Notes under the pieces: generated by a model | Database searches by the model: none | What the model was told of the DNA's origin: nothing | What the model saw: only the letters and a program-made list of their open reading frames with translations | Assembly: GCA_030386875.1 (NCBI GenBank) | Contig: CM059560.1 | Location: 47,968,757-48,032,756 of the forward strand | Length of the DNA: 64,000 nucleotides | Direction: 5' to 3' | Origin: Morinoia aosen | Lineage: Eukaryota > Arthropoda > Malacostraca > Amphipoda > Talitridae | Part shown: positions 19,973 through 62,664 of the stretch, one piece after another | Numbering within the stretch: the stretch's first letter is position 1 | Layout of the letters: each line of letters starts with the position of its first letter | Made by a program: the position numbers and the translations under genes

Positions 19973-19976
19973 CTGG

Positions 19977-21358
19977 TGTCATAGTTCTACTGTGACTGCT
20001 CTACGCTGTGTTTGTATGAGCGTTAAGAAGAAAAAGTCTGCCTAGCTAGCGACTGAAATTCCTTCGAAAAGACTGACTTCCATAAGAATATCTTCTCGTC
20101 AGTAAGGGCTGCATATTCTTGTCTCCACAATCTTCGCCTAGACATCGTCCACTGTCGCCTTCAGCTCTACCAACCGTCACATCCAACAGCAACAACATCA
20201 TCCTCATCGCTTGAAAAGCGCACCAACACACCCTCTACGTGTGACACGTCACAAGGCGTCGATAGCTTGCCGTGCTGCCAAATGCTTCCATTGTTTAACA
20301 TATGTTCTTTTCCTTCCTTAGAGAGACTTAGGATCTTATTCACTCTGGGTAAATTAACTGTCATCCAATCGTATATCTATTCTCTTCTAATTATATGATG
20401 ATACTTGCCATTTCCGATAGGAATAGCTAACGTAAAGCATTGTCTATAAGAGAACCTGTTTGTTCTCAATACGAACGGCGTCCCAGTCTCCTGCGCTTAG
20501 AAGGCGACGGCCTGAGCAGAAGCTGCCCAGCGATCACGAGGGACAGTCGTACTTATTTGTGTCCGCCTACCTCGCTGCCTGGCAAGTTTAGCCAGGTAGT
20601 GAGGGTTATTCACGGTTATTCGCTGTTATTCTCTGTTATTCAGTGAGTCGTGCATTGACTCATAAGCGCCGTCTACATCCGAGCTAAGTATCCCAATGTC
20701 TTTGTGAACCACACATTCATATTCCTTTTATTTCGCGTAATAAGTCTAGATTCTGTACCAAAAAAATGTATCGCGTTAGGTTTATTGATGAGTTAAGTTC
20801 TGTATTTTGCAAACTAAATGATTCCGCGTCGAGGCTTCACCTCATATAAAATGTGCTTATCGTAATTATCAATGTATTAATGTTCAAATAGTGAAGGCTT
20901 CACCTGCTTATTTTGAGGTCGTGATGCGATTTCCGGAAACTGTATCTTCTGACAGATTAGAGTAATCTCTGAGATTTGATGGCATTACGATCATCTAGAT
21001 TCTTTAGTACGATATGTACATCGCAAGTCAATCACTATCCGAATGTGTAATCCATTGTTATTTGAAAGACGTCATCATTATAACATAAATTTACGTTGCA
21101 ACCGCTTCGTCATTTACCTTATTGAGGCCCTATTCGATTTGCTATGATATTATATTTAATTACAACTAATGACATTGAAAAGTCTCAGTCTATTTCGATC
21201 TTTAATACTAATAAAATAAAATAATGGAGACCTTCAGTCGCGACCATCGACCTTAAGAAAATGAAAGCGACGAGAAAATAACGATGAATAATGAAGGAAA
21301 AGAACTGCCACATGGAAATAGGATGGCAACGTCATGATCCCCAAGCGAGGGTATGACA
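19977..21358 (+). repeat. 5' LTR of LARD-like element
   Basis: 1382 bp, TGTCATAG...GGTATGACA. Contains four tandem 10-bp units of the GGTTATTCNC type (20604-20643) and an AATAAAATAAAATAA polyadenylation-like cluster near 21210, about 150 bp from the LTR end, a plausible site for the R region's 3' end. Short minus-strand frames inside it are repeated in the other LTR and are not genes. Confidence 0.9.
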
Positions 21359-21359
21359 A

Positions 21360-21378
21360 TGGTGGCAGCGGTGGGATT
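21360..21378 (+). promoter_or_regulatory. Primer binding site, tRNA-Leu type
   Basis: TGGTGGCAGCGGTGGGATT starts one base after the 5' LTR. It is the exact complement of AATCCCACCGCTGCCACCA, which from memory is the 3' end plus CCA of animal cytosolic tRNA-Leu (AAG family). A 19-nt match to a tRNA 3' end immediately after an LTR is diagnostic of a reverse-transcription primer site. Confidence 0.85.
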
Positions 21379-24300
21379 TTAAGTTTGTTTAATGATAATT
21401 CTGCTTAATCTTGCTGTGCTCACGCTCCGAAAGAGACCGCTTGAATTTGTCATGCTTACCAATTCCCAATTAAATTTGTCACGCTTACCAACTATCAATT
21501 ACTAAAATTACTAAATTATGCCACGTTACCAAACCACATCTAATTATATCAAATCCACTTCAAATATTTTATAAAGCATAAAAATTGCATTTAATCGGCC
21601 AGACGCAAATTTAGATAGTGAAGGGTGATTTAAATTGTAATGAATGATTATCATTATCATTGTATCAGGGTGTTTAATAATCTATGTCATTGTATCCCGC
21701 TTGCATTTAAATTGTTTCTATTTTAGGTGCCCATTTACTAATATTGTGTCATTTTATTTCTATTGTGAACCTATTTACATTTCATTTATTGTGTTTGTTT
21801 ACTATAAAATTATTCATATGTCTAATCATGCATTAATTTTGGGTTATGATTCATTAATTTCTCTCGATAATCACGTTTCAGGTTAGCCGTTTGCAATCCT
21901 CTGATTATGTTTTGCTCATTATACTAATTATTCCCGTTCTGAAGCTTCATATTTCATTATTATATTGTGTATTAATTGCCTATGTATTTGGATATACCAA
22001 GTATGCAAAAGAATTAATCACAATCGATCTACAAAAATAAACTCAAGCCTCATTCAATTAATTATCGTACATGTTACTGTATTCGAGCAATAAGTTGGAA
22101 TAGGGCTCTGTGAAAATTTCATATAGAAGCCAAGCCATTAAACTGCAGGCGCCATTTTGTATCGACGAAAGAGGCACAAGAGCGGCACTGTTCATGACGC
22201 CGGCTTTAAATTCAAATCTTCAGACTTAGTTGAACGTTTAAAGCTATGTCATCTTAGCTCGTCAAAGTTTAAACTATGTTTGTGAAGTTATCGACTCTAA
22301 AGTATAATTCGTAAACCTTCTTAAAAATTTTACGTGGATAATTTAAAGCTGTACCTTATTAAAAATTAAATTTCATCCTCACATGCTAAAGGAGGCTCAT
22401 GTAAAGGTAAAATTTCATTCAAAATAATATTTTCCGCGCATCAAAAATTTAACATACACTATGTATACTTATAAATTTGATATTTACTAAATTTACTGAT
22501 GCGAAATTATATAATCTACTGGTAATTTCATTCCACGTCCATCTCAAATTTATTGCAATGTGTAACCATGTGATTTCATGTTGAGAGGGATGATGTATGA
22601 TTGTTCACGTCTGGGATGTTGGTGTTGAGGTGCTATGGAGAGGGTGACATTGGCGAGGCTGTGTGCTGTGGTGTCGGACGGTCTACCAAGCCATTGTTTA
22701 CATTCAAGCCACCCTCCACCGCTCTGGCTCTGCCTGGCGCTCGATCCTTCCGACCCTCCTTCCCTCTGCTCCATATGCCCGAGTGCCTGCCTCTACATCC
22801 CTTTTTTTTCTCGATGCCTAACGGACGTACCACGTCCACTCGTGCTACTCATAGTGGACTCTATCTTCATAGCACGTATCGAAGTGATGATCTTATCTCA
22901 CACTCAATTGAAATGTTTGATACTTAAATTTTAACGTAACGTTACGCGTACACTACTTAAACGTAATGATGTAACTTTTTCATTTCATCATTCTATCATT
23001 TGTCATTCTGGATTGCTTGCCATATCTTTTAGTCAACGAATAAACTAATTACCACCGCAAATTGAATACTTGAATATAATTCATGCGCATATCTGGATCA
23101 TTGATTATATAAAAAAAATTATTCTCTCAATGTTCGTATGAATTAGAGCATCGCAACAAAATGTAAATGTTATCAAAATCAAGTGAATCTGATTCTAATT
23201 CAGAGGTCATACCGCTCTGTCATTATCTAAATTCCAACGTTAATGTGTTATTAGAAATTTATGTAGTCTTTCTTTTGGCGATTCATAATTGTCACGTACT
23301 GCCACGTCTAGTTTAAGATTGGAATTAAATTAGGCTTATGTCCTCTTTTGTAAACGCGAAGTAAAGTGGAATGAATGGGGTGAACATGATATGGATACAA
23401 ATGCGAATGCCTGCAACGAGAAGGTGAAAATTTCGGACTAATAAGGTCATTAAATAACCAAAACTGAACTTTCAGTCATGGCGCCATGGACCAGTCGTAC
23501 GCCGGCCGACAACCGGCATCACAAGGACGCGCTTGCCTTGTGTGGTGCCCAACCACGTCGCACAGAGCACCGGCTCAACCACAACCGCACCGCTCAACCC
23601 AGAGGGGGGACAGCAACGTCTGCGCGCACCGTGGACGTGAGCGAGTGGATGGGCATACACGCACACAGCGCGGCACTGGAGGCAGCAACGGCGACGGCAG
23701 CAGCGGCAGCAACAGCGGCAACAGCAATAAGAATGGCGTCACAGCTTGGACGTCGGCGCTTGAGGGATACGCACCTACACCTTCACGTCCCTAAACGCAC
23801 GCACGCACATGCGCTTCGCGTACGAGCATCAGCTGGTCAGCACGCGACACGACGCAATCTCACAACTCCCACAGCAGGTAACATCGACGACGGAAGACGT
23901 GGCGGCGAGTGAAGGGAGCGACGTTATGCCGTAATTACCAGCGAGACGACATATGGGGCAGCAGCGCTCCATAAGATGACGACATCCCGCATAAGAGGAA
24001 AACGTCCACCTTTTATCTCAGGCCTCGTGGAGTTATTTAACTCGAAATTTTCTGCAAGAGGAAACAAGTAAATGGAAGCCCCTTGGACCCTAGGCGGCCA
24101 AGGTATTTAAGGGATTTTATCCCTGAAGTTCTTTAGCTTCACGACTGCTGTATACGGCGGTCATGGCGACAAGAGGGGAACGTCGACGTCCGCTGTTAGG
24201 GGAATAGGTTCTGCCCAAGAACGACTGCACGGAAGTCTTCATGTGACTTCCCCGTATCAGAGCACTTATTTGGAGCAAATCTTGTCGTCAAGCTTCACAT

Positions 24301-24411
24301 CTGTTTCCTCGGAACTACGCGTCATTCCAACGTTGTAGTCGCGCGCGAGGTCGAGAAAAGGGGAAGAAAAAGCATGAGCTTTTAAACAAAAAATCGCGAC
24401 GGAGGGATATT
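21379..24411 (+). other. Non-coding interior of LARD-like element
   Basis: About 3 kb. The first half is AT-rich; 22600-22850 and 23460-24350 are markedly GC-rich. A 144-codon frame at 23478-23912 is Ala/Thr/His/Arg-rich with a CAG/GCA/GGC-type triplet run near 23690-23730; overlapping frames on both strands are also open, as expected from composition. No zinc knuckle, D-T/S-G protease, YXDD or integrase motif is seen. A short purine stretch (GACGGAGGGATA, 24398-24409) abuts the 3' LTR and may serve as the polypurine tract; a stronger one (AAAAGGGGAAGAAAAAG) lies about 40 bp further upstream. Confidence 0.6.
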
Positions 24412-25792
24412 TGTCATAGTTCTACTGTGACTGCTCTACGCTGTGTTTGTATGAGCGTTAAGAAAAAAAAGTCTGCCTAGCTAGCGACTGAAATTCCTTC
24501 GAAAAGACTGACTTCCATAAGAATATCTTCTCGTCAGTAAGGGCTGCATATTCTTGTCTCCACGATCTTCGCCTAGACATCGTCCACTGTCGCCTTCAGC
24601 TCTACCAACCGTCACATCCAACAGCAACAACATCATCCTCATCGCTTGAAAAGCGCACCAACACACCCTCTACGTGTGACACGTCACAAGGCGTCGATAG
24701 CTTGCCGTGCTGCCAAATGCTTCCATTGTTTAGCATATGTTCTTTTCCTTCCTTAGAGAGACTTAGGATCTTATTCACTCTGGGTAAATTACCTGTCATC
24801 CAATCGTATATCTATTCTCTTCTAATTATATGATGATACTTGCCATTTCCGATAGGAATAGCTAACGTAAAGCATTGCCTATAAGAGAACCTGTTTGTTC
24901 TCAATAAGAACGGCGTCCCAGTCTCCTGCGCTTAGAAGGCGACGGCCTGAGCAGAAGCTGCCCAGCGATCACGAGGGACAGTCGTACTTATTTGTGTCCG
25001 CCTACCTCGCTGCCTGGCAAGTTTAGCCAGGTAGTGAGGGTTATTCACGGTTATTCGCTGTTATTCTCTGTTATTCAGTGAGTCGTGCATTGACTCATAA
25101 GCGCCGCTACATCCGAGCTAAGTATCCCAATGTCTTTGTGAACCACACATTCATATTCCTTTTATTTCGCGTAATAGGTCTAGATTCTGTACCAAAAAAA
25201 TGTATCGCGTTAGGTTTATTGATGAGTTAAGTTCTGTATTTTGCAAACTAAATGATTCCGCGTCGAGGCTTCACCTCATATAAAATGTGCTTATCGTAAT
25301 TATCAATGTATTAATGTTCAAATAGTGAAGGCTTCACCTGCTTATTTTGAGGTCGTGATGCGATTTCCGGCAACTGTATCTTCTGACAGATTAGAGTAAT
25401 CTCTGAGATTTGATGGCATTACGATCATCTAGATTCTTTAGTACGATATGTACATCGCAAGTCAATCACTATCCGAATGTGTAATCCATTGTTATTTGAA
25501 AGACGTCATCATTATAACATAAATTTACGTTGCAACCGCTTCGTCATTTACCTTATTGAGGCCCTATTCGATTTGCTATGATATTATATTTAATTACAAC
25601 TAATGACATTGAAAAGTCTCAGTCTATTTCGATCTTTAATACTAATAAAATAAAATAATGGAGACCTTCAGTCTCGACCATCGACCTTAAGAAAATGAAA
25701 GCGACGAGAAAATAACGATGAATAATGAAGGAAAAGAACTGCCACATGGAAATAGGATGGCAACGTCATGATCCCCAAGCGAGGGTATGACA
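24412..25792 (+). repeat. 3' LTR of LARD-like element
   Basis: 1381 bp, collinear with the 5' LTR including the four 10-bp units (25039-25078). Differences from the 5' copy are scattered single bases plus a 1-bp deletion near 25106. Confidence 0.9.
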
Positions 25793-25796
25793 CTGG

Positions 25797-29123: not shown

Positions 29124-29137
29124 TAAGCCAGTATATA
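29092..29137. repeat. (TA)n microsatellite at the gypsy insertion site
   Basis: About 28 bp of alternating TA (29092-29120) followed by GTATAAGCCAGTATATA, which abuts the 5' LTR of the gypsy element. The last five bases ATATA (29133-29137) are the left target duplication. Confidence 0.85.
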
Positions 29138-29774
29138 TGTGGTGTATTGCTACGCCAGGCACGTATTCCTACGCGCGGCCAATCACAGGGCTGCACCCGT
29201 CAGCGGGTTGCTTGTGTACACATCGTAATTTGTGTTCACGGACGCTTTGGTGTTCCAATGTGTTTATTCTGTTTAGAATTACACATGCGACGTTTTTTAC
29301 GTTGTAAGCTGCTCCGTTTGAGTGGCAGGAGGTATTTTGTGGGATCTACTTCCTGACGTATGGAGCGTCGATTGGTGTGCCGGCCTTGGCATTATTGCGT
29401 CTGCTGCTGCCGAGTGAGGTTGAGCGCGTTTGAGCTTCCGGTTTCGCTCTTGAAGTATCGTTGCGAGATACTTGTGTTGGGTTCTTTTCCTTGTGCTGAG
29501 ACACACGCAGGTAGGACCTGCAGGCGTGTCGTGTGCCTGTGAATCTGAGTGTTGTTCAGACTCACCACACTAGCTTGGAGCTAGTGTGTGCTTCCGTTTC
29601 TGCCGTGAAGTGTGTTCGTTTCACGGCAGCGTGTGTTCACACTGGGTGTGTCCTTTGACACACGAGCTCAGGTGTGTGTCTGGCGTCGGCTGTAGGGGAG
29701 GTTTGGAGGCCGACCCGAGCTCTAGGAGCTCGGCTTTGAGATCTTGGGTCTCGGGATTTGCACATCCCACTACA
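29138..29774 (+). repeat. 5' LTR of gypsy element
   Basis: 637 bp, from TGTGGTGTATTGC to ATCCCACTACA. Lacks the 7-bp duplication (GACTGCC) present in the 3' LTR. Its right half holds the stem-loop chain annotated separately. No clear TATA box or AATAAA signal seen. Confidence 0.93.
29453..29733 (+). promoter_or_regulatory. Chain of eight perfect stem-loops in the LTR
   Basis: Eight successive perfect inverted repeats fill 281 bp: AAGTATC (29453, 7-nt loop); GCAGGT (29507, 3-nt loop); GTGA-TCTGA (29539, 7-nt loop, one internal mismatch); CACACTAGCT (29566, 3-nt loop); CTGCCGTGAA (29600, 10-nt loop); GTGTGTC (29646, 4-nt loop); GTCGGC (29685, 18-nt loop); CCGAGCTC (29715, 3-nt loop). The last abuts the seventh. 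The matching 3' LTR block keeps every stem; its three substitutions all fall in loops. The chain would lie in the transcribed leader if transcription starts upstream of it; the function is unknown. Confidence 0.7.
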
Positions 29775-29802
29775 AGCTATCTAGGCTTTTTTGCCTTGCC
29801 TT

Positions 29803-30756
29803 ATGTCGGAGGTGCGTAAGGCAGGGACTGCGTCATCGAGAGATGATGCAGGGTCGCCCGGGGCGGCTAGTGGTGCGTCTGGGACAGCCACCACGGTTGA
29901 TCTTAGGCAACTGGCCAGCATCCTGATGCAGGCTAAGGGGCCTATTATTGACCGATTGGGGAGAGCTCTCCCCAAGTTCAGCGGCGACGGCACAGTGGAT
30001 GTGTCGGAGTGGCTGGATGACCTTGAGCGCAGGTGCAAGGTTGAACAGGTTGGACCTGAGGAGGTCGTAGACTTCCTGCTCGAGGGCAATGCTGCTCGAG
30101 TGTTCCGCGCCCTTAGGGTGTCGGAGGCCTCCCAGTGGGAGGTAGTGAAGGCGACACTGCTGGCGCAGTACGGCATGTCACGGCAGGAAGCCTACAGGCG
30201 CTTCACGGACCGTCAGCTTCAGGCTGGCGAGGCCGTGGACGTCTATGTGGACGACCTGCAGCGCATAGGCGCTCGGCTGAGGGCAGGGCCTGAGGACTTG
30301 ATCTTCCGGGTCAAGTTCCTTGAGGGCCTGCCTCAAGCCATCCGTAAGTGGGCAGTGATGCTCCCGGAGGTTTACACCTCCAGCTTCGACGAGTTTCTGT
30401 CGAAGGTGCGCGACAGGGTGTCCGCACAGCGTGCTGCTGATGGCCTTACTTATGCGAGCAAGGCCAAGGCAGCCGCAGCTTCTTCCGGGAAGAAGCATGG
30501 GCTTGTATGCCCAAGGTGCACAGGACCTCACCGGGGGAGGGACTGTACCCAGACTCGCCGCAAGGCGAAGGCAGTGCCTCCTTCGAACAGCAGGAAAGAA
30601 AGCTTATGCTTTCGCTGCTCGAAGCCCGGGCACTTTGCTCGGGACTGCCCAGAGCCCCCAGCTGCCGCTGGCGGCGCTGATTGCGGTTCGGGTTTCCGCG
30701 GGGAGGAAGTGGAAAGGGGCACCGCTTCCTCCGGCGTGGAAACCATGGAAGTCTAG
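29803..30756 (+). CDS. gag: Gag polyprotein of gypsy element
   Basis: A 317-codon open frame from ATG at 29803 (first ATG after the LTR) to TAG. After an Ala/Ser/Gly-rich N-terminus, the region from about residue 45 to 205 reads like a retrotransposon Gag capsid domain, with the pattern L-P-K-F-S-G-D, V-x-E-W-L-D-D-L-E and R-x-F-x-x-R-Q. The C-terminus carries a zinc-knuckle-like C-P-R-C...H...C and a canonical CX2CX4HX4C knuckle (C-F-R-C-S-K-P-G-H-F-A-R-D-C). It would form the virus-like particle and bind element RNA. The frame is intact; Pol is reached by a -1 shift near the C-terminus. Confidence 0.9.
   Translation: MSEVRKAGTASSRDDAGSPGAASGASGTATTVDLRQLASILMQAKGPIIDRLGRALPKFSGDGTVDVSEWLDDLERRCKVEQVGPEEVVDFLLEGNAARVFRALRVSEASQWEVVKATLLAQYGMSRQEAYRRFTDRQLQAGEAVDVYVDDLQRIGARLRAGPEDLIFRVKFLEGLPQAIRKWAVMLPEVYTSSFDEFLSKVRDRVSAQRAADGLTYASKAKAAAASSGKKHGLVCPRCTGPHRGRDCTQTRRKAKAVPPSNSRKESLCFRCSKPGHFARDCPEPPAAAGGADCGSGFRGEEVERGTASSGVETMEV
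30690..30732 (+). promoter_or_regulatory. -1 programmed ribosomal frameshift signal, gag to pol
   Basis: Slippery heptamer G-GGT-TTC (30690-30696) sits in the correct gag phase: zero-frame codons are GGT and TTC. Five bases later starts a perfect 8-bp stem, GGAGGAAG (30702-30709) with CTTCCTCC (30725-30732), loop 15 nt. A -1 slip enters the frame that carries the protease. TGGAAA in the loop could also pair with TTTCCA at 30760-30765 (pseudoknot), more speculative. Confidence 0.75.
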
Positions 30757-32256: not shown

Positions 32257-33418
32257 GGAGCTGGCTTCGCGAGCACTGGCTGATGACCCTGTAAAGGGTC
32301 GTTGGCATGTCAATCCTGGTGGGAATGTTACCGTCTGGACTGACGCCAGTTCACTGGCAATGGGTGTGGTCGTCCAGGTGGATGATCGCATCGTGGAGGA
32401 TGCTACCTGGCTGCGGAAGCAGGCAGATCATCTCCACATTAATGTCTCAGAGCTTGAGGCTGTGGGACGTGGAATCAATCTGGCTATTATGTGGGGCTTC
32501 AAGACCTTCACTATAGCCACTGATTCCAAGACAGTATTATCCTGGTTGGATAACACTGTCGGTGATCACAGTCGTGTGCGCACCAAAGGAGCAGCGCAGA
32601 TGCTCATCAAGCGTCGCTTGATGGTGATCAAGGAGATCATCAATGAGTATCAGCTGTCGGTTGAGTTTCGATTCGCTCCCACGGTCGAGAACAAAGCTGA
32701 TCAGCTCACTCGTGTGACTAAGAGCTGGCTTAGTTATCACACGGCTGACGAGCCGGACTCTGTCTTACCTGCGTCAGTGGCGGCTTCTGCAGAAGAAGGG
32801 ACGCCAGAGAACGCCATTTGGAAGGCTCATTTGCCCCACCATTTGGGCGTTGATCATACCTTTTATTTGGTCAAGCAGTGCAGGCCGGGCCTTACTCGAG
32901 ACCAAGTGAAACGTACGATTGCAGGGTGTGAGGAGTGTCTTCGCATTGATCCTGCAAGACGGGCGGAGAACCTTGTCGAGCACGGCAATTTAGCCGTCGA
33001 GAGTGACTGGCATCGTGTAGCTGCGGATGTGACGCACTATAACGGTGTACAGTTTCTCTCTCTCGTCGATTGCGGACCATCTAGGTTTGCAATTTGGCGA
33101 AGGCTGTCGAACGAGTCGGCAGCCAGTGTAGTCGCTCATCTCCAGCAGGTGGTGATTGAGCGAGGACCTTTTGTGGAGCTATCGTTGGACAATTCTGCCA
33201 CATTTAGGTCGGCAACTGTCACTCAGTTTGCCAACGAATAGGGTATCTCTCTGCGTTTCAGAGCCGCTTATGCCCCGAGCGGTAATGGAATCGTAGAGAG
33301 AAATCATCGCACAATCAAGAGGATTGCTGCGCGGGGGGATCACCCCCGAGGTGGCGACGTTTTGGTACAATGTAACGCCACGGCACGGAGTCGATAGCAA
33401 CTCAGTGCCTTGTCGAAG
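32243..33418 (+). pseudogene. pol: Pol: RNase H and integrase core, stop and frameshift
   Basis: Open to a TAG at 33239-33241. RNase H: W-T-D-A-S near 32336, E-L-E-A, A-T-D-S-K and a downstream N-K-A-D. Integrase: HHCC zinc finger (H-H-L-G-V-D-H ... G-C-E-E-C near 32930), catalytic D in A-A-D-V-T-H-Y, second D in L-S-L-D-N-S. The catalytic E (G-I-V-E-R-N-H, near 33296) lies just past the stop in the same frame. A run of eight G at 33333-33340 then breaks the frame, and the remainder stops at the nested insertion. Confidence 0.88.
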
Positions 33419-33692
33419 TCTTATGTCATGTACATGTAAACTGTCAAAAGTGTTTTCACCCCACAATGAAAATGCATCGTCCATGAAATTGTGTTATCTC
33501 TTACAATTTTCATTACATGTATTATCAGATGTAGATTAAGCTAGATTAGGAGTTCATTGCCCTCAATCATTTCTTTTGACTAGTGACACGAGTTTTTCAA
33601 TACTCGTGTGTGTGTATCATCTAAGTGTATTAATTTTAAGATATTTTAAAAACCAATGATGGTACTTTTGTACCATCTCTATTGGAAATAAA
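33419..33692 (+). repeat. 275-bp hairpin repeat, copy A
   Basis: About 93-94% identical to copy B. Holds hairpin 1 (ACACGAGT 33586-33593 with ACTCGTGT 33602-33609) and terminal hairpin 2 (CCAAT/ATTGG outer and GATGGTAC/GTACCATC inner, 33653-33685), then AAATAAA and a poly-T/CT tract. The terminal hairpin plus AATAAA-like end resembles a LINE or SINE 3' end. Confidence 0.8.
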
Positions 33693-33699
33693 CCATTTT

Positions 33700-34130
33700 T
33701 TTTTCTTTTTTATGTGTACATATATGTGTATATATTTACATGTATGTGTGCACATATGTGTGTACTAAACTGACAACTAGCATTTTACTAGAGATAATGG
33801 TCATTTTCTGTTCACTCTCAACTTGTAACATTACCTAACTCGTCATCTTTTTATTATTGCAAAGCATTCATGTACCAACTATACATTTGTTGTACGATCA
33901 TCCATTTATATTTAAATAAAATGCTTATTAACTAACGACCGTTATGTTAAAATTGTTGAATTAGAAATACAAAACTTATAATCTTCTTGGTCCTCATGCT
34001 TATGCGTACATATATATATATATATATATCTGTATGTGTGTGTGTATGTATGTATGTATATATGTATGTACGTATATATATGTATATGGATTTGTATTTA
34101 TATATATATATTTTTTTTTTCATGCTTCCT
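33700..34130 (+). repeat. Microsatellite-rich spacer between the two hairpin repeats
   Basis: TATATG/TGTG-type runs at 33712-33765 and 34008-34120 flank about 240 bp of unique AT-rich sequence. No coding potential. Confidence 0.7.
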
Positions 34131-34202
34131 TAAAATGACACTTTTGAACATTTGCCGAAACAAGCGATTCATATATTATTTCCTGGCATCAATAATTGCG
34201 AA

Positions 34203-34500
34203 GTTTTATGTCATGTACATGTAAACTGTCAAAAGTTTTTTCACCCCACAATGAAAATGCATCGTCCATGAATTTGCGTTATCTCTTATAATTATCATTA
34301 CATGTATTGTCAAATGTAGATTAAGCAAGATTAGGAGTACATTGCCCTCAATCATTTATTTTCGACTAGTGACACGAGTTTTTCAATACTCGTGTGTGTG
34401 TATCATCTAAGTGTATTAATTTTAAGATATTTAAAAACCAATGATTGTAATATTGTACAATCTCTATTGGAAATAAAGTTTTTTCTTTCTTTCTTTCTTT
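34203..34500 (+). repeat. 275-bp hairpin repeat, copy B, with (CTTT)n tail
   Basis: Starts at the same internal point as copy A. Hairpin 1 is unchanged. Hairpin 2 (34438-34470) has inner stem GATTGTA/TACAATC, differing from copy A by a paired substitution that keeps the stem. Ends AAATAAAG followed by TTTTTTCTTTCTTTCTTT. Confidence 0.8.
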
Positions 34501-35001: not shown

Positions 35002-35007
35002 GGGGGA
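34991..35007 (+). promoter_or_regulatory. Polypurine tract
   Basis: CGAGGAACTGAGGGGGA lies directly against the TG of the 3' LTR; the AGGGGGA end is the expected plus-strand primer position. Confidence 0.75.
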
Positions 35008-35651
35008 TGTGGTGTATTGCTACGCCAGGCACGTATTCCTACGCGCGGCCAACCACAGGGCTGCACCCGTCAGCGGGTTGCTTGTGTACACATCGTAATT
35101 TGTGTTCACGGACGCTTTGGTGTTCCAATGTGTTTATTCTGTTTAGAATTACACATGCGACGTTTTTTACGTTGTAAGCTGCTCCGTTTGAGTGGCAGGA
35201 GGTATTTTGTGGGATCTACTTCCTGACGTATGGAGCGTCAATTGGTGTGCCGACTGCCGGCCTTGGCATTATTGCGTCTGCTGCTGCCGAGTGAGGTTGA
35301 GCGCGTTTGAGCTTCCGGTTTCGCTCTTGAAGTATCGTTGCGAGATACTTGTGTTGGGTTCTTTTCCTTGTGCTGAGACACACGCAGGTAGGACCTGCAG
35401 GCGTGTCGTGTGCCTGTGAATCTGAGTGTTGTTCAGACTCACCACACTAGCTTGAAGCTAGTGTGTGCTTCCGTTTCTGCCGTGAAGTGTGTTCGTTTCA
35501 CGGCAGCGTGTGTTCACACTGGGTGTGTCCTTTGACACACGAGCTCAGGTGTGTGTCTGGCGTCGGCTGTAGGAGAGGTTTGGAGGCCGACCCGAGCTCT
35601 GGGAGCTCGGCTTTGATATTTTGGGTCTCGGGATTTGCACATCCCACTACA
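35008..35651 (+). repeat. 3' LTR of gypsy element
   Basis: 644 bp, collinear with the 5' LTR. Carries a 7-bp duplication (GACTGCC) and seven substitutions relative to it. Followed by ATATA. Confidence 0.93.
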
Positions 35652-35660
35652 ATATATATA

Positions 35661-35706
35661 CTGGCTTGTATTTGCCGGCCTCATGGGGAGCCCAAAACGG
35701 ACAAAT
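35661..35706 (+). mobile_element. 46-bp 5'-end fragment of the I/LOA-like LINE
   Basis: Nearly identical to 37889-37934: TGGCTTGTATTTGCCGGCC followed by CATGGGGAGCCC, that is, the sequence around the ORF1 start. It ends abruptly at GGACAAA. Left boundary coincides with the palindrome into which the gypsy element inserted. Confidence 0.8.
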
Positions 35707-37911: not shown

Positions 37912-38762
37912 ATGGGGAGCCCAAAACGGACAAAACATAAAACGAAGGGAGGGGCCTTCTCAAAGTCCCCTGCCCCATATGCAAGGCCAACAAAAGCACA
38001 AAACCTTGCAATCGCCAAACCTCTAAACCAAACTTCTGTTTCTATAGGTGAAGAAGCCAATAGCGCTTCCACTTCTGATATGCATGGAGAAGTCATGGAA
38101 ACTCAGAAAGAAAGCTTCCAAATAAACCTAAATGCACTTCAGACCCTACCCAAACTGGTGTAAAGCGTCCTAGAAGCTCATCACAGTCTTCACTACTATC
38201 AAATCTATCTCTCAATTCAGACCCAAACATTGCTGGCTTTCAAACCTGCCAGCTAGAAACAAACAATCCTGTTGCTACAACCACTGAAAACAATTTTGAT
38301 GATACTCTGCCTTCATACCAACCTCAATCAACAGGCAATCAAACACACAATGGTGGTGCCCCAGTACTTTTCATTGAACCTGCAGAAAATAATAGCAATG
38401 CTAATAAATTCCTGTCAAATGAGTTTCAACTTTCAAAACTTCTTGCCAACTCTCCTTTTGGAACAGCAGGAATTACCAACATCCATAAAAACTTCAAACA
38501 AAACATCTTCAAAATGTCTTCCACAGCTGCACCAAAAATATCCTCACTGCTAAAAATAACAGAATTAGCCCCCTGGCTGATACGCTGTTGCTTACCTGCC
38601 TACCAGTCTCAATCCATCGGTGTCATAAAACCTTTTGGGACCGATACGCTGGATTTGGAAATTGAAGAAGCCCTGGAAGAGGCAGGTTATGAAAACCTCA
38701 AAGTAACGCAAATACAGAAATCCAAAAACCAAGGCCCTACAACAATGGTAAAAATAGTTTTC
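37912..38762 (+). pseudogene. LINE ORF1 (Gag-like), N-terminal part
   Basis: ATG at 37912 in CCTCATGG context begins a basic N-terminus (M-G-S-P-K-R-T-K-H-K). An indel between about 38100 and 38150 moves the reading into another frame, which then stays open through a Ser/Asn/Gln-rich region to a folded-looking part (A-P-W-L-I-R..., G-P-T-T-M-V-K-I-V-F) typical of the region before the zinc knuckles in Jockey/I-type ORF1. The MITE interrupts directly after V-F. Confidence 0.75.
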
Positions 38763-39305
38763 GGTAAATGTAAAGGACTTGACCATAATCGATTTTCCAC
38801 TTTTTGATCAACAAAGATTGTTGATCAGACCAAAATAAACAATTTTTCTTCAATGCACTTTCCGGCGGAAATGAGTATTTTAAAAGTTAGGGCGTTAAAT
38901 GAGTTACCGGAACTCCTGTGTGCATCACCCTATTACAAACGTAAAGAGGTTGGGTCGTGAGGGGTAGCCACAGTTCTTTTAGTTTTATAGTTTTCACTAA
39001 AAGAACTGTTGCTTCCCCTCACGACCCAACCTGTTTACGTTTGTAATAGGGGGTTTGCTCTTTGTCGGCTTAATTGGCGCGCGGGAACGCCTGTTTACTT
39101 TCACGTCGGACCGCGCGGTGTATTTTTCCCCGCCTCAAACACTGGAGTTACGGTAACTCATTTAATGCCCTAACTTTTAAAATACTTATTTCTGCCGGAA
39201 AGTGCATTGAAGAAAACTTGTTTATTTTGGTCTCATCAACAATCTTTATTGATCTAAGAGTGGAAAATCGATTATGGTCAAGTCCTTTACATTTACCTAG
39301 TTTTC
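38755..39305. mobile_element. 535-bp foldback MITE with 8-bp target duplication
   Basis: Element 38763-39297 flanked by perfect TAGTTTTC duplications (38755-38762, 39298-39305). Outer arms of about 158 bp (38763-38920 and 39140-39297) start GGTAAATGTAAAGG and are near-perfect inverted repeats; inner arms of 56 bp (38928-38983 and 38996-39051) surround a 12-bp loop. The right side has about 88 bp of GC-rich spacer that the left lacks. No ORF. An 8-bp duplication fits hAT, P or Merlin-type transposition; the termini do not settle which. Confidence 0.92.
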
Positions 39306-40820
39306 CATTCTACTTCTCTCCCAGAGTACATCTATCTAAATTATCAAAGATTCAAAGTCAATCCATACATAGGTAAGCCATGGCAGTGTTACCAATGCCA
39401 AAAATTTGGACATAATGCTCAACAATGCAGAAACCAACCTTGATGTATAGCCTGTTCAGGCCCACATCAAGTAAAGGACTGTCCTTCAGGCTCCATGCCA
39501 AAATGCACAAATTGCTCTGGCTCCCACACTGCAAACTATGGTGGCTGCCCCTTTGTAAAGCAAGCAAAAACAGTGGAAAAAATTCGAGTACAGCATAAAC
39601 TTTCATATAGAGATGCTTTGGCAGAAGTCAAGCAAAACTCAACCCTAACTACAAAAAGAGACCTCCAACCAACCCATTCTTCAATGCCTATGAAACCAAA
39701 TTTACCTAAATTGACCATCAACAACTCAGCTCAAACCTCAGTAACAGTAGCCACCCAAACTGAAGCTGACTCCATCTCTCCAAATGGAATACAGTCAACA
39801 TTAAAAGAGTTGGTTTCTCTTCTATCCAAAGTACTCAACTTCTGTCAACCGCAAAATTTGACCACCGACCCTGAGCTGTTGAATAGCATTGCAAATGCAG
39901 TCATCAGCACAGTGGATCTCCACATTTCTGGTAATACAAAAGACAAACACTCAATAAGTTTAGAAGAAAACCAATCAGTTCAACAACATGCAACTGAAAT
40001 GAATCTTACAGCCAAATCCAGTTCAACCCAACTAACCACAGTATCCGTAGCCCCCAACATGTCATATAGTCGATGGCTAGAAGATGACATCTCCCCCTCA
40101 CCAGTTATTGGAGGCAAGTACTTGAAGCCTCAAATAGCCAAGCTCACTTCTATTGAACCATCTCCGGTGCTAGGAGTAGGACGGAGACATGATCCCTTGA
40201 AGTCACATCTAAACCAGCATCCTCAATCACTGAATAAAAAAGCCTACAAAATTCCTCCCCAAAAAGAACTGAAGATTCTTCAATGGAACTGCCCCAGTAT
40301 ACAAAATAAACTCTCACTTTTTAAGCTTCACTTACACTCAACTCATCCAAATGTTGTATGTTTGAGCGAGACATGGTTATCTGCTGATTTTGAGCCCACT
40401 TTTGTCAATTACACTCCTATATACTCTCATCGCCAAAATGGACAGCAAGGAGGGGGATTAGCATTGTTAGTATGCAATGACATTCCTCATCTGCCTTTAA
40501 ACTTGGTTCATTTTCCTAATGGCCAACTAGAGGTCCAAGCCCTATCCATAGCACTAAACCAGTCATGCTCCCTTGCAATCCTTAATGTCTATAATCCAAA
40601 TTGTCCTATCACCGTTCAGGAAATTAATCATTATTTCACTTCCTTGGGAAACAGCTTCATAATTCTGGGTGACTTCAATGCCCATAGCACATTGTGGGAG
40701 CCCAATAATAACCACAATACTAATAGTACTGGAAAAAACATAGAACTGTTCCTTCTCCAACACCCAAATGTTGCCCTACTCACTCCCCCATCTCCCTACC
40801 TACTACAATACTTACCATAA
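39298..40820 (+). pseudogene. LINE ORF1 zinc knuckles joined in frame to endonuclease
   Basis: Directly after the MITE, ORF1 resumes with C-Y-Q-C-Q-K-F-G-H-N-A-Q-Q-C, a second knuckle C-x-A-C-S-G-P-H-Q-V-K-D-C and a third C-T-N-C-S-G-S-H, with one in-frame TGA at 39441-39443. The same frame runs without a stop from 39495 to 40820 into an AP endonuclease: L-Q-W-N-C, L-S-E-T-W-L, G-D-F-N-A-H-S. The endonuclease end (S-D-H motif) is in the next frame, so an indel lies near 40790. No ORF1 stop separates the two proteins in this copy. Confidence 0.82.
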
Positions 40821-42703
40821 CCAACACTCTACTCTGGATCTTTCCTTCTCATCTACCAATTTCCTACCAAGTGCCTTTGTTTGCTCTGGCCCAGACCTCA
40901 CCAGTGATCATTACGCAATAACTACAACTCTTCCGTTAACCCCTCAACTGGTCCTGCATCGCACCTTACCAAGATGGAAATTTGATCAAGGCTCCTGGGA
41001 TGGATGGGTGAGATCCTTACCAGGGAGGTAAAGTGACATGATAGAAGATGTCACTATGAGTAATTCAGAACTGACACACTGCATCATAACAGCCTCCTCA
41101 GAAAATTTTCCCCAGACCAAAGAAACTGTTAACCCTCGTTTTAGTAAAATTTGGTGGAACCAAACTTGCAAAACAGCCTTTGAAAACAGAAATATAGCCA
41201 AAAAACTCTTCATAAAACAACCTACTCAAAAAAATCTTCTAGCCTTCAAACGTGCCGAAGTTCAACTTCAGTGGGATATCAAGGAAGCTAAACGTTCCTC
41301 ATGGACTAAGTTTTGCAACTCCATAACTTCAGACACCCCTCCGATACTTTGGAAAAAAATCCACAACTTGAGATCCTCTCCTCGAAAAACCCAACCTTTT
41401 GTAATGCCAACTAACATAGTGTCAGACTCGCCAGGAAAAGCTAACCTTCAGGCCTCTCATTTTGAGAAAACCTTTTCAGCACCAGCTCCTCAACCCTACC
41501 CCCACTTATATTCTATTACCTCTTTCTATTGCACTACTAAATGATAGCTCAATATGGTACAACTCTGCAATTGCAATGCATGAACTTAATAGAGTTATCT
41601 CTACTTTAAATAATACTTCTCCTGGTATAGACCGAGTCAGTAATCAACACATTAAACACTTGCCTTTATCCTACAAAGAATGGTTATTAGACATTTATAA
41701 TCAGAGCTTCAACACTGGGGACATCCCTCAATCATGGAAAAAAGCCCTTCTTCTACCCATTCCCAAACCTTCAAAACCTCCTTCAGATGTCTCCTCATAT
41801 TGTCCTATCTCTCTGCTATCTTGCATTGGGAAGTTAATGGAAGCATTAATAAAAAAACAGACTGAACTATTTTCTTGAAGATACTAATGCGCTAAGGCCA
41901 CAGCGGGGGGGATTCCGACAGAGGCTGCCTGCGGTGGACCAGGTGACAAGGTTGGAATCGGCAATTCGAGAGGCACAGATAAACAAAAATCACTTATTAG
42001 TAGCTTTTTGTGACCTTTCACATGCCTTTGACTGCGTCTGGCACACAGGCCTTCTATATAAACTCTCTAGATTGGGTGTTTACGGCAGGCTTCTCCAATG
42101 GATTAGAGAGTACCTGAAAGACCGTTGCTTCCAGATTTTCTTTGAAGGAGAACGGTCAGCTGAGAGGAAAATGAGGACTGGTGTCCCACAAGGAGCAGTC
42201 CTATCTCCCCTGCTTTTCAATGCAATGTTGAGCGACCTGCCCTCAACTTCAACAGTACAGACTGCAGAATATGCAGATGACATTATTATTTTAATTCTCA
42301 CCAAAACCTAGCTACAGCTGCGCAGAGTATCCAAGGTGCTCTAACATCTTTTCACAACTGGCCTTCAAAATGGGGCCTTGCACTGAATCTTGGAAAAACA
42401 AAATGTATGCTCTTCACTCACTCCCAAGTTACTCCCCCAACAATAATGATTGCAGGGACAACTATAGATTTTGTAGCACAACACCAAAAGCTTGGAGTAA
42501 CTCTGGACACCCCTAAATTGAACTGGTCTTCCCATATTGCTTCTCTCAAAACACATTGCATCCCACTTACAAATCTCATAAAAGCTATCTCTCACCACCA
42601 TTGGGATACTGACCAATCCCTTTTGCTCAAATCATACCGTACACTTATTCGTAGTTGCCTAGACTATGCAGCTCCCTTATATTCTACAGCCCCAAAATAT
42701 TAG
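40768..42703 (+). pseudogene. LINE ORF2: endonuclease end and reverse transcriptase, broken
   Basis: Pieces in three frames. 40768-41031: S-T-L-D-L-S-F-S-S and L-T-S-D-H-Y-A-I (endonuclease C-terminus), then a stop. 41038-41544: connecting region. 41462-41878: S-P-G-I-D, C-P-I-S-L-L-S (usually R-P-I-S-L). 41934-42311: A-F-C-D-L-S-H-A-F-D-C-V-W, G-V-P-Q-G-A-V-L-S-P and the catalytic A-D-D at 42270-42278. 42407-42703: K-L-G-V-T-L-D and Y-R-T-L-I-R-S-C-L-D-Y. At least four frame changes; not functional. Confidence 0.85.
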
Positions 42704-42812
42704 CTGCAAAAATTAAACATTATTCAAAACAACTCATATCGAATTGCGCTGGGCTGTCTCAAAACAACTCTTATAAACTCTTTAGAAATAGAAGCAACTA
42801 CACAGAACTCAC

Positions 42813-44009
42813 TTGTTGATCAATTGTACCCTCAGAATCTTACAACTCTCAGAATTCCTGAAACTTTCAAACACACCCCAGATCAGACTATTGAGCAAGA
42901 TTTCTTCTTTCCTAGCACTTGCTGCCAAAACCTTCAAAGAGTATCAACAACCCTTTCCTCGCCCAATGGTTACAACCCTGCATTCCCCATTCTCCCCCCT
43001 CATAAGAACAAGTACCATATTGATCTCAAACTTCTCCCAAGACTCATCAAAATTTTCTTCAGAATCTATTGTCCAACTCTTTCATGATCTAATCCAGACT
43101 CAATATAATTCATATTTGCATGCTTACACCGATGGCTCTCATTTTGGAAACCCCACGTCTTCCACAATAGCCGCACTGGTAATCCCATCAAAAAATGTAA
43201 CACTCAACTGGAAACTCTCTCCATTTGTCTCCTCATTTGGAGCAGAGCTCTTTGCAATTTTTGAGGCTTCAAGATGGGCACAGTATAATCTACAAGATGG
43301 GGAAGGGTATGTCATCTTCTCTGACTCCTAGTCATCCATGCAACTCATACAATCAATCAAACCAAAGAAATACATTACAATGGTATACAATATCCAGCAA
43401 ACCCTAACATCCTTGAACAATAAACATAATGTAAAACTCCAGTATATTCCAGCACACAAAGGAATTGTTGGAAATGCAGCAGCTGACAATCTTGCAAAAG
43501 CAACACACAATCTGCAGTACCGCACATTATCTCCTCTCCTCACTGAGGACATCCAGACTCGCCTACATAAACTTGTAACTGAAGAGTGGAGGAAAACCTG
43601 GCACACAGCAGTACAACAGGGGAAGGGCAGATTCTTAGCTGCAATAAAAAACTCAATAGGTGAATGGCCGTGGGCTTCTCATCCCAATCGCATGGTTGAG
43701 ACCTCAACAACCAGACTTAGACTTGGACATGTGAGACTTGCTGCACACCTGTACCGCTTTGGCCTGTCTGACCCCCCAGACTGTGAGTGTGGAGGCACAG
43801 AAACAATTGAGCATTTTCTTCTGAATTACCCAAACCACAACACTGCCCGCCGCACCCTTAATAACTACCCCAACACCATACGAGTGCCCCTAACTTTAAA
43901 AAATATATTAGGAGGAGGCCACTTCGAAGAGTCTGTGCAATTCTCAATCCTGAATGCCCTTACTCAATTTTTAAGAGACACCAAAAAAATTAGCCACATT
44001 GTAAAATAA
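42813..44009 (+). pseudogene. LINE ORF2: RNase H domain and C-terminus
   Basis: One frame with a single stop at 43329-43331. RNase H catalytic pattern present: Y-T-D-G-S (first Asp, near 43126), G-A-E-L-F-A (Glu), F-S-D-S (Asp) and A-A-D-N-L-A-K (Asp, near 43482), with P-A-H-K-G-I-V-G-N before the last. The C-terminus shows C-E-C-G-G-T-E-T-I-E-H-F-L-L, a zinc finger whose final Cys appears to be Tyr. Frame ends TAA at 44009. Confidence 0.87.
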
Positions 44010-58284: not shown

Positions 58285-58714
58285 CGCGTGTTGATGTTAC
58301 GCTTCGATATAGACGTGTCACGCATCGATATAGACGTGTTACGCATCGATATAGACGTGTTACGCATCGATATAGACGTGTTACGCATCGATATAGACGT
58401 GTTACGCATCGATATAGACGTGTTATGCATCGATACAGACGTGTTACGCATCGATATAGACGTGTTACGCATCGATATTGACGTGTTACGCATCGATATA
58501 GACGTGTTACGCATCGATATAGACGTGTTACGCAACGATATAGACGTGTTACGCAACGATATAGACGTGTTACGCATTGATATAGACGTGTTACGCATCG
58601 ATATCGACGTGTTACGCCTCGATATAGACGTGTTACGCATCGATATAGATGTGTTATGCATCGATATAGACGTGTTACGCATCGATATAGACGTGTTATG
58701 CATCGATATTGTCA
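58285..58714 (+). repeat. 21-bp satellite, array 1 (about 20 units)
   Basis: Tandem units built from GATATAGACGTG plus TTACGCATC, period 21. Because 21 is a multiple of three and the unit lacks stops in several frames, long ORFs appear on both strands (7-residue repeats such as I-D-I-D-V-L-R and S-I-S-M-R-N-T); these are artefacts. Most variants are CG to TG or CA changes. Confidence 0.97.
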
Positions 58715-60123: not shown

Positions 60124-60706
60124 TAACAATATAGACGTGTTACGCATCGATATAGACGTGTTACGCATCGATATAGACGTGTTACGCATCGATATAGACG
60201 TGTTACGCATCGATATAGACGTGTTATGCATCGATATAGACGTGTTACACATCGATATAGACGTGTTATGCATCGATATAAAAGTGTTACGCATCGATAT
60301 AGACGTGTTATGCATCGATATAGACGTATTACGCATCGATATAGACGTGTTACGCATCGATATAGACGTGTTACGCATCGATATAGACGTGTTATGCATC
60401 GATATAGACGTGTTACGCATCGATATAGACGTGTTACGCATCGATATAGACGTGTTATGCATCGATATAGACGTGTTACGCATCGATATAGACGTGTTAC
60501 GCATCGATATAGACGTGTTACGCATCGATATAGACGTGTTACACATCGATATAGACGTGTTACGCATCGATATAGATGTGTTATGCATCGATATAGACGT
60601 GTTACGCATCGATATAGATGTGTTATGCATCGATATAGATGTGTTACGCATCGATATAGATGTGTTATGCATCGATATAGACGTGTTACGCATCTAGATA
60701 GACGAT
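60124..60706 (+). repeat. 21-bp satellite, array 2 (about 27 units)
   Basis: Same unit and orientation as array 1, more homogeneous. Toward the right end, units ending TTACGCAT and TTATGCAT alternate, suggesting an emerging 42-bp higher-order repeat. Open frames of nearly 200 codons on both strands are artefacts of the period. Confidence 0.97.
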
Positions 60707-62302: not shown

Positions 62303-62664
62303 TTTTGAAACCTTTATGCGAATCTGCTGCATGAAAATGGTACGAAATAAGAAAGGTTATTATTTTGAAACGTCTATCCCATTCTGCTGCATGAAAATGG
62401 TACGGAATAAGAAAGGTTATTATTTTGAAACATTTATCCCAATCTGCTGCATGAAAATGGTACGAAATAAGAAAGGTTATTATTTTGAAACGTTTATCCC
62501 AATCTGCTGCATGAAAGTGGTATGAAATAAGAAAGGTAATTATTTTTAAACGTTTGTCCCAATCTGCTACATGAAAGTGGTATGAAATAAGAAAGGTTAT
62601 TATTTTGAAACATTTATCCCAATCTGCTGCATGAAAATAGTATGAAATAAAAAAGGCTATTTTG
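62303..62664 (+). repeat. 60-bp minisatellite, six units
   Basis: Six consecutive 60-bp units with shared AATCTGCTGCATGAAA, GGTACGAAATAAGAAAGG and TTATTATTTTGAAAC. Period is exactly 60 with only substitutions between units except in the last, which decays after AAAAAGGCTATTTT. One frame stays open over three and a half units (20-residue repeat), then hits stops, so it is not coding. Confidence 0.95.

What the first reader, a model, noticed from the sequence alone, without database searches (positions are those of the whole stretch)
19973..25796. Young LARD-like LTR element with no coding capacity in an animal genome
Seen: 1.38-kb LTRs with 7-bp terminal inverted repeats, CTGG target duplication, a 19-nt tRNA-Leu-type primer site, 3.05-kb interior without recognisable gag/pol, and only nine substitutions plus one indel between LTRs. 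Known: large non-autonomous LTR elements (LARDs) are mostly described from plants. Inference: a currently or recently active parasite of an unidentified autonomous partner in this animal.
Basis: partly seen in the sequence, partly recalled or inferred. Interest (0 to 1): 0.75.

Follow-up and report, generated by a model that had tools for sequence, protein, structure and literature searches.

The report
Non-coding LTR element with tRNA-derived leader
This is a real, recently inserted, protein-less retrotransposon belonging to a large family in an animal genome, and its start region carries extra tRNA-matching sequence that it shares with an abundant, intact-looking gypsy-type retrotransposon that is its most likely helper.

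Summary
It is not a one-off deletion. In two capped hit lists, 18 copies could be paired at both interior ends and all 18 have 2994-3069-nt interiors. Single LTRs, nested insertions and a sister family about 70% alike exist. No reading frame tested is kept across the copies compared, and no gag or pol was found. So it is a LARD in the structural sense, one of several related non-coding families with the same PBS. The PBS matches tRNA-Leu(AAG) exactly. New here: 43 nt after the PBS the leader holds antisense tRNA-Leu sequence lacking the anticodon arm (score 30, shuffle maximum 20, 0 of 2000). The same altered copy, with an extra base at the same place, lies in the leader of an abundant young Ty3/gypsy family with the same PBS; 133 of its 134 scored RT matches lack stops. 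I take that lineage as ancestor or helper. Mobilisation in trans is inferred, not shown. LARDs in insects are already reported, so this is a known kind with an unusual priming leader.

The parts
19973..19976 (.). target site duplication CTGG (left)
19977..21358 (+). 5' LTR, 1382 nt, TGTCATA...TATGACA
21360..21377 (+). 18-nt primer binding site, exact complement of tRNA-Leu(AAG) 3' end with CCA (19-nt match to 21378)
21421..21441 (+). leader segment CACGCTCCGAAAGAGACCGCT: antisense tRNA-Leu (variable arm joined to D arm, anticodon arm missing, one extra base), shared with gypsyA/B
21449..21489 (+). two copies of GTCAYGCTTACC (part of a 29-nt two-copy tandem repeat, 21444-21501), resembling the antisense of the tRNA-Leu 5' end (GGCCACGCTACC)
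   Evidence: resemblance read by eye; not part of the scored alignment for this copy
21359..24411 (+). non-coding interior, 3053 nt; similar length in 18 of 18 paired copies
24401..24411 (+). purine tract GGAGGGATATT abutting the 3' LTR
   Evidence: similar tracts in other families
24412..25792 (+). 3' LTR, 1381 nt
25793..25796 (.). target site duplication CTGG (right)

Best explanation
A large retrotransposon derivative (LARD) family that moves by using the proteins of Ty3/gypsy elements. Its RNA supplies only signals: LTR promoter and ends, a PBS for tRNA-Leu(AAG) followed by a leader with further antisense tRNA-Leu sequence, a purine tract, and LTR termini for integrase. Shown: anatomy, family, lack of conserved coding, primer match, shared leader, and abundance of a gypsy family with open RT and the same PBS and leader. 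Inferred: that this gypsy lineage (here gypsyA/B) is the source of the leader and supplies Gag and Pol in trans, and that the leader helps to anneal the primer tRNA, as the bipartite PBS does in Ty1 and Ty3.
For: Anatomy. Family: 672 first-look LTR candidates, 40 scored; 348 and 355 for the interior ends, 40 scored each; interior of 2994-3069 nt in 18 of 18 paired copies. 4-bp duplications at 7 of 14 loci examined. Frames broken by stops or frame-shifting indels in most copies compared, substitutions spread over codon positions. Primer: 7 of 12 loci with the matching 3' sequence hold tRNA-Leu(AAG) there. Leader: score 30 for the window copy, 39 for gypsyA and gypsyB, 25 for LARD family B; 0 of 2000 shuffles each. 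Genome pattern of PBS plus motif: 33 places, reversed control 0; by eye 14 have the gypsyA leader type, 15 a LARD type, 4 others. Of the 14, nine have an RT match within 4 kb in the capped list; of the 15, none has, and the 4 of 15 fetched all match LARD DNA. gypsyA: 134 scored RT matches at 96-100% identity, 133 without a stop; one copy read has LTRs 99.1% alike over 823 nt.
Against: No LTR homology between this family and gypsyA/B beyond the PBS junction was found. The same PBS occurs at 206 places in several families, including another gag/pol lineage (L056), so other helpers are possible. The tRNA-arm deletion used as a model was chosen after seeing the leaders; with the whole tRNA the window copy reaches only 22 (3 of 1000 shuffles, maximum 24). 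Related families C and F show no such leader, and D and E match the tRNA without the shared deletion or extra base. The window copy itself is not among the 33 places, its spacing being longer than the pattern allows. The nearest full copy (C21) and 21 other places carry a different PBS with no matching tRNA gene found. The one gypsyA copy checked shares 3, not 4, bases at its flanks. The leader does not fold better than shuffles. No expression or particle data.
Confidence: 0.65

Rival explanations
1. It is an ordinary LARD whose helper is some other, unsampled gag-pol element; the shared leader with gypsyA/B is old ancestry or convergent capture of the same tRNA and says nothing about the present helper.
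For: 206 PBS places, of which I read the LTR-PBS junction of 20 and downstream pieces of 16; LTRs not homologous to gypsyA/B; another lineage (L056) with gag and protease uses the same PBS; six elements show that tRNA-Leu is copied repeatedly.
Against: The leaders of LARD A, LARD B, gypsyA and gypsyB share the same missing arm and an extra base at the same place, which independent copying would not readily repeat.
Confidence: 0.27
2. It is a recent internal-deletion product of one autonomous element.
For: Such derivatives are common (general knowledge); long LTRs and intact ends would be kept.
Against: Same non-coding interior in 18 of 18 paired copies and a family 68-75% alike over about two thirds of the interior; no gag/pol remnant found.
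Confidence: 0.04
3. A chance direct repeat or segmental duplication that mimics an LTR element.
For: None beyond the lack of genes.
Against: TSD, TG..CA ends, PBS, purine tract, single LTRs and hundreds of candidate copies.
Confidence: 0.01

Closest known systems
LARDs of barley and relatives (Kalendar et al. 2004; not read, known here only from passages of PMC3532108)
   Same: LTR element features, non-coding interior of about 3.5 kb, no own proteins
   Different: shorter LTRs (1.4 against ~4.4 kb), animal host, tRNA-Leu primer with tRNA-antisense leader; no sequence comparison with barley made
Non-coding LTR families cqUNK of Culex quinquefasciatus (PMC3286476, passages and section 14 read)
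   Same: mosquito non-coding LTR elements, many several kb long, without known master copy; LTRs over 98% alike; two of those tabled have a Leu PBS
   Different: those carry tandem repeats between the LTRs; here only a 29-nt two-copy repeat and short periods, and a candidate helper lineage
Helenus TRIMs of animals (PMC10886601, outline with abstract and sections 13 and 16 read)
   Same: non-autonomous, 4-bp TSD, similarity to autonomous Gypsy at the PBS region, some tRNA-Leu primers
   Different: the longest Helenus there is 1263 bp, with tRNA-like sequence inside the LTR; here the tRNA sequence is antisense, in the leader, and the element is 5.8 kb
Bipartite PBS of Ty1 and Ty3 (PMC5371799 and PMC4974528, passages)
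   Same: extra segments complementary to primer tRNA arms outside the main PBS
   Different: yeast elements use initiator tRNA-Met; here tRNA-Leu, and the segment looks copied from the tRNA by reverse transcription
Mouse VL30 (PMC4859993, passages) and ETn (recalled)
   Same: LTR elements without protein-coding capacity, with intact replication signals and many solo LTRs
   Different: VL30 keeps gag and pol broken by stops; mammalian retroviral helpers (recalled)

Membership tests
LARD | long LTR element with PBS, PPT and TSD | tested here: met
LARD | large (several kb) interior without coding capacity | tested here: met
LARD | multi-copy family with a conserved interior, not single deletions | tested here: met
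   seven relatives (two of them 3' parts only) 88-98% alike to the window interior
LARD | mobilised in trans by an autonomous element | tested here: inconclusive
   candidate lineage with shared PBS and leader and open RT; transfer not observed
LARD | transcribed, structured RNA | not testable with these tools
   no RNA data; the first 150 nt of the interior fold no better than shuffles
TRIM | total size under about 1 kb | tested here: not met
   5816 nt
Ty3/gypsy (Metaviridae) | own RT and integrase of that type | tested here: not met
   no pol in the interior
Ty3/gypsy (Metaviridae) | PBS to a tRNA 3' end and short TSD, as in the candidate helper | tested here: inconclusive
   PBS identical in gypsyA/B; the window copy has a 4-bp TSD, the one gypsyA copy checked shares only 3 bases
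Ty1/Ty3-type multipartite PBS | extra segments complementary to the primer tRNA near the PBS | tested here: met
   sequence only, model partly post hoc
Ty1/Ty3-type multipartite PBS | segments needed for priming | not testable with these tools
   needs bench data

The most novel reading that the evidence does not exclude
A clade of protein-less LTR elements and their gypsy helpers share a primer-capture leader: reverse transcriptase copied the primer tRNA-Leu(AAG) beyond the usual A58 stop, and such copies became fixed as extended primer-annealing sites that tie the parasites to the helper's primer. Six elements still carry near-exact copies (0-3 mismatches): 4 of 6 end just before tRNA position 37 and 2 of 6 end two bases earlier, as if a methylated base there halted copying. 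LARDs then persist over long times as signal-only replicators (sister family at about 70% identity).
Probability: 0.4. Interest if true: 0.72.

Novelty: new variant of a known kind. Interest (0 to 1): 0.5.

Why it matters
An open question for animal LARD-like and TRIM-like elements is which autonomous element moves them. A shared, derived leader gives a testable link between the parasite and an abundant helper family with open frames in one genome. The frozen tRNA copies also give a genomic record of where reverse transcriptase stops on its primer tRNA.

Tried and rejected
Large LTR spacings at C1:50.74M and C15:68.58M (about 9 kb) looked like autonomous copies; they are LARDs with an antisense Ty1/copia element nested inside (Pfam run on the C1 pieces only). 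L026 (C24:68.36M), first taken as a link between LARD and gypsy, has no LTR pair in the pieces read; its downstream piece L054 does match a gypsyA relative at 81% over 157 nt, so the lead is open. The shared leader motif was first read as plain homology; it proved to be tRNA-derived, then the shared junction again favoured common descent. A tRNA gene for the second PBS type was sought: one search used a wrong pattern (two bases too long) and its zero is void; with the right one found 91 places and no exact gene of that type, and the one near match (L084) is not a tRNA by ARAGORN. RNA folding of the leader gave nothing. A paper search for tRNA-Leu PBS in insect gypsy elements found 0 papers. 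Named eukaryotic genomes were not searched; none is held. The species was not identified.

Full report
Observation. The LTRs differ at nine places plus one single-base gap over 1381 compared sites. The ends, the CTGG duplication, the PBS at 21360 and the purine tract are present. A 17-nt part of the PBS is found once in the window against a shuffle mean of 0.05.

Family. The window lies in a 1.99-Gb genome of 29 contigs with no name given. The first 601 bases of the LTR gave 672 first-look candidates; the 40 scored matched at 89-100%. The two 600-base ends of the interior gave 348 and 355 candidates, 40 scored each, so counts are not verified copy numbers. Pairing the two lists of 40 by position (up to 12 kb apart) gives 18 copies with both ends, the window copy included; all 18 have interiors of 2994 to 3069 nt (three further rows there are cross-pairings inside a tandem array at C5:7.10M). 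Copies read outside that pairing: C3 and C19 have interiors of 3037 and 2987 nt as cut; C20 is longer (3796 nt as cut, with one interior part present twice); C1 and C15 are interrupted by copia. The closest copy, C21, is 98.3% alike in the interior, with LTR K2P 0.0118; C3 has 0.0133. Seven of the loci read hold a single LTR without interior. At 14 loci whose flanks were compared, 7 show a perfect 4-bp duplication (window, C21, C3, C12, C4, and single LTRs L021 and L023), 5 share only 3 bases (L011, L019, L020, C11, gypsyA) and 2 share neither (L010, L022).

No coding. The frames tested gave no Pfam match. Ten gag/pol stretches of gypsyA, gypsyB, L056, the window's own LTR element and copia gave no tblastn hit in the window copy or in the other non-coding loci tested, nor did gypsyA gag in the set. 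The longest frame (152 aa) has no stop in C21, one stop in C3, and stops in all five other copies compared, all five also with frame-shifting indels; substitutions are spread over codon positions. The three shorter frames tested are broken in every other copy compared.

Related non-coding families. The PBS with LTR end was found at 206 places, reversed control 1. I read 20 of these, chosen by hand over the end types, not at random, and downstream pieces of 14 of the 20 and of 2 others. Three of these 16 (L056, L057, L059) hold gag, protease or pol; one (L061) holds frames that look like a LINE and one (L058) a tandem repeat. A second LTR was sought in pieces of 14 sites and found in 4, each 99-99.75% alike over 400 nt; for most others the pieces were too short to reach one. 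The four are family C (C4:81.56M, duplication ATGT), D (C11:39.92M), E (C3:17.34M, LTR start not found) and a further copy of the window's family (C12:74.63M, CTTT). Family B (C17:12.69M) is 68-75% alike over about two thirds of the interior. LTR 3' parts of several of these families align at 72-77%. Two spaced 9-kb copies are LARDs with nested antisense copia.

Primer. Seven of 12 loci fetched for the matching 3' end hold a tRNA-Leu(AAG) gene there, one is called tRNA-Arg(ACG), and four hold none. Those four are LTR-element leaders in which the PBS runs on as an antisense copy of the tRNA. With the CCA-derived TGG asked for, 12 places exist, reversed control 0; six have the TGG and are such elements, and six lack it: two of these are tRNA-Leu genes and four are presumed tRNA genes. 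In 4 of 6 the match ends after 47 bases, directly before the base that follows the anticodon (position 37); in 2 of 6 it ends two bases earlier; mismatches inside are 0 to 3 (position numbers set by hand from ARAGORN's anticodon, since the script's own index line picked the wrong AAG). One of the four (L080) is a gypsyA relative, 91% alike, with gag. That eukaryotic tRNA-Leu bears m1G37 is recalled. That m1A58 is the usual stop in HIV-1, and that copying runs past it when the methylating enzyme is mutated, is from passages of PMC13191261.

Leader. Beyond the 18-nt PBS, antisense tRNA-Leu scores above chance (at most 5 of 1000 shuffles) in 17 of 28 leaders tested, the four long copies and five copies of the window's family included, and not in 11 of 28. 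The window copy reaches 22 against a shuffle maximum of 24, 3 of 1000. If the stretch between two AGAC repeats (the anticodon arm and its neighbours) is left out of the tRNA, the window copy rises to 30, gypsyA and gypsyB to 39, family B to 25 and L026 from 30 to 31, each 0 of 2000 shuffles; D (22, 3 of 2000) and two E leaders (26, 0 of 2000) gain nothing. This model was chosen after seeing the sequences. The window copy, family B, gypsyA and gypsyB have one extra base at the same place, though not the same letter (two bases in L026). Across the genome, PBS plus motif occurs at 33 places, reversed control 0; by eye 14 are of the gypsyA leader type, 15 of a LARD type and 4 others. The window copy is not among them, because its gap of 47 nt exceeds the pattern's 42. 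By eye, 9 of the 14 have an RT match within 4 kb in the capped list, and 0 of the 15 have. The four of the 15 that I fetched are LARD relatives: 69-70% alike to the window interior over 165-493 nt in all four, and 75-80% to its LTR in three.

Helper. gypsyA RT gave 16354 first-look candidates, of which 134 were scored; these are 96-100% alike and 133 have no stop in the match. One gypsyA copy has LTRs 99.1% alike over 823 nt, one gypsyB copy 98.8% over the 812 nt read. Their purine tracts and LTR ends resemble those of the LARDs by eye. LTR sequence is not detectably shared. I therefore hold the gypsyA/B lineage as source of the leader and as likely helper, at 0.65 for the whole explanation.

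Unexplained. C21 and 21 other places carry a second PBS type for which no tRNA gene was found. The window's exact PBS may be a re-templating of that type by tRNA-Leu, with a 2-nt difference (alignment); this is inference. Several loci share 3 rather than 4 flanking bases.

Literature. The library holds open-licence PubMed Central papers only. Papers were seen as listings or passages, except section 14 of PMC3286476 and sections 13 and 16 (with outline and abstract) of PMC10886601, which were read. They show that large non-coding LTR elements in insects, and helper inference from the PBS region, are known, as are multipartite tRNA contacts in Ty1 and Ty3. The listings of my searches did not show a title or abstract on an antisense-tRNA leader shared by LARDs and a helper; the Culex paper's cqgypsy_1, with two tRNA-identical sequences at the PBS, is the nearest that I saw.

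Noticed in passing
window 29137-29805 and 35007-35685: Second LTR element in the window: 680-nt direct repeats 96.3% alike around gag (CCHC), RT-like, RNase H and integrase matches in broken frames; an internal repeat spaced by 785 nt lies at 33414-34496.
   Followed up: partly
window 38079-44006: Non-LTR (LINE) element with endonuclease, reverse transcriptase and RNase H matches in several frames.
   Followed up: no
window 58295-58709, 60129-60704, 62303-62661: Two arrays of a 21-bp unit (about 20 and 27 copies) and an array of a 60-bp unit (6 copies).
   Followed up: no
G000 C5:7101434-7113154: Tandem array of the LARD: three interiors at 4.41-kb spacing, as from recombination between LTRs.
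   Followed up: no
L015-L018 (C1:50.74M, C15:68.58M): Ty1/copia elements with long open frames nested antisense inside two LARD copies at different places (Pfam on the C1 pieces).
   Followed up: partly
L075, L077, L079, L080, L096, L097: Six LTR-element leaders whose PBS continues as a 45-47-nt antisense copy of tRNA-Leu(AAG), ending at or near tRNA position 37.
   Followed up: yes
22 places in G000; read in L009, L012, L014, L085-L088: Second PBS type (TGGNGGCAGCGGAGTGAG or TGGTGACAGCGGAGTGAG) before the LARD leader, with no matching tRNA gene found.
   Followed up: partly
L011, L019, L020, C11:39.92M, gypsyA C5:33.89M: Flanks share 3 bases next to the LTRs instead of a 4-bp duplication.
   Followed up: no
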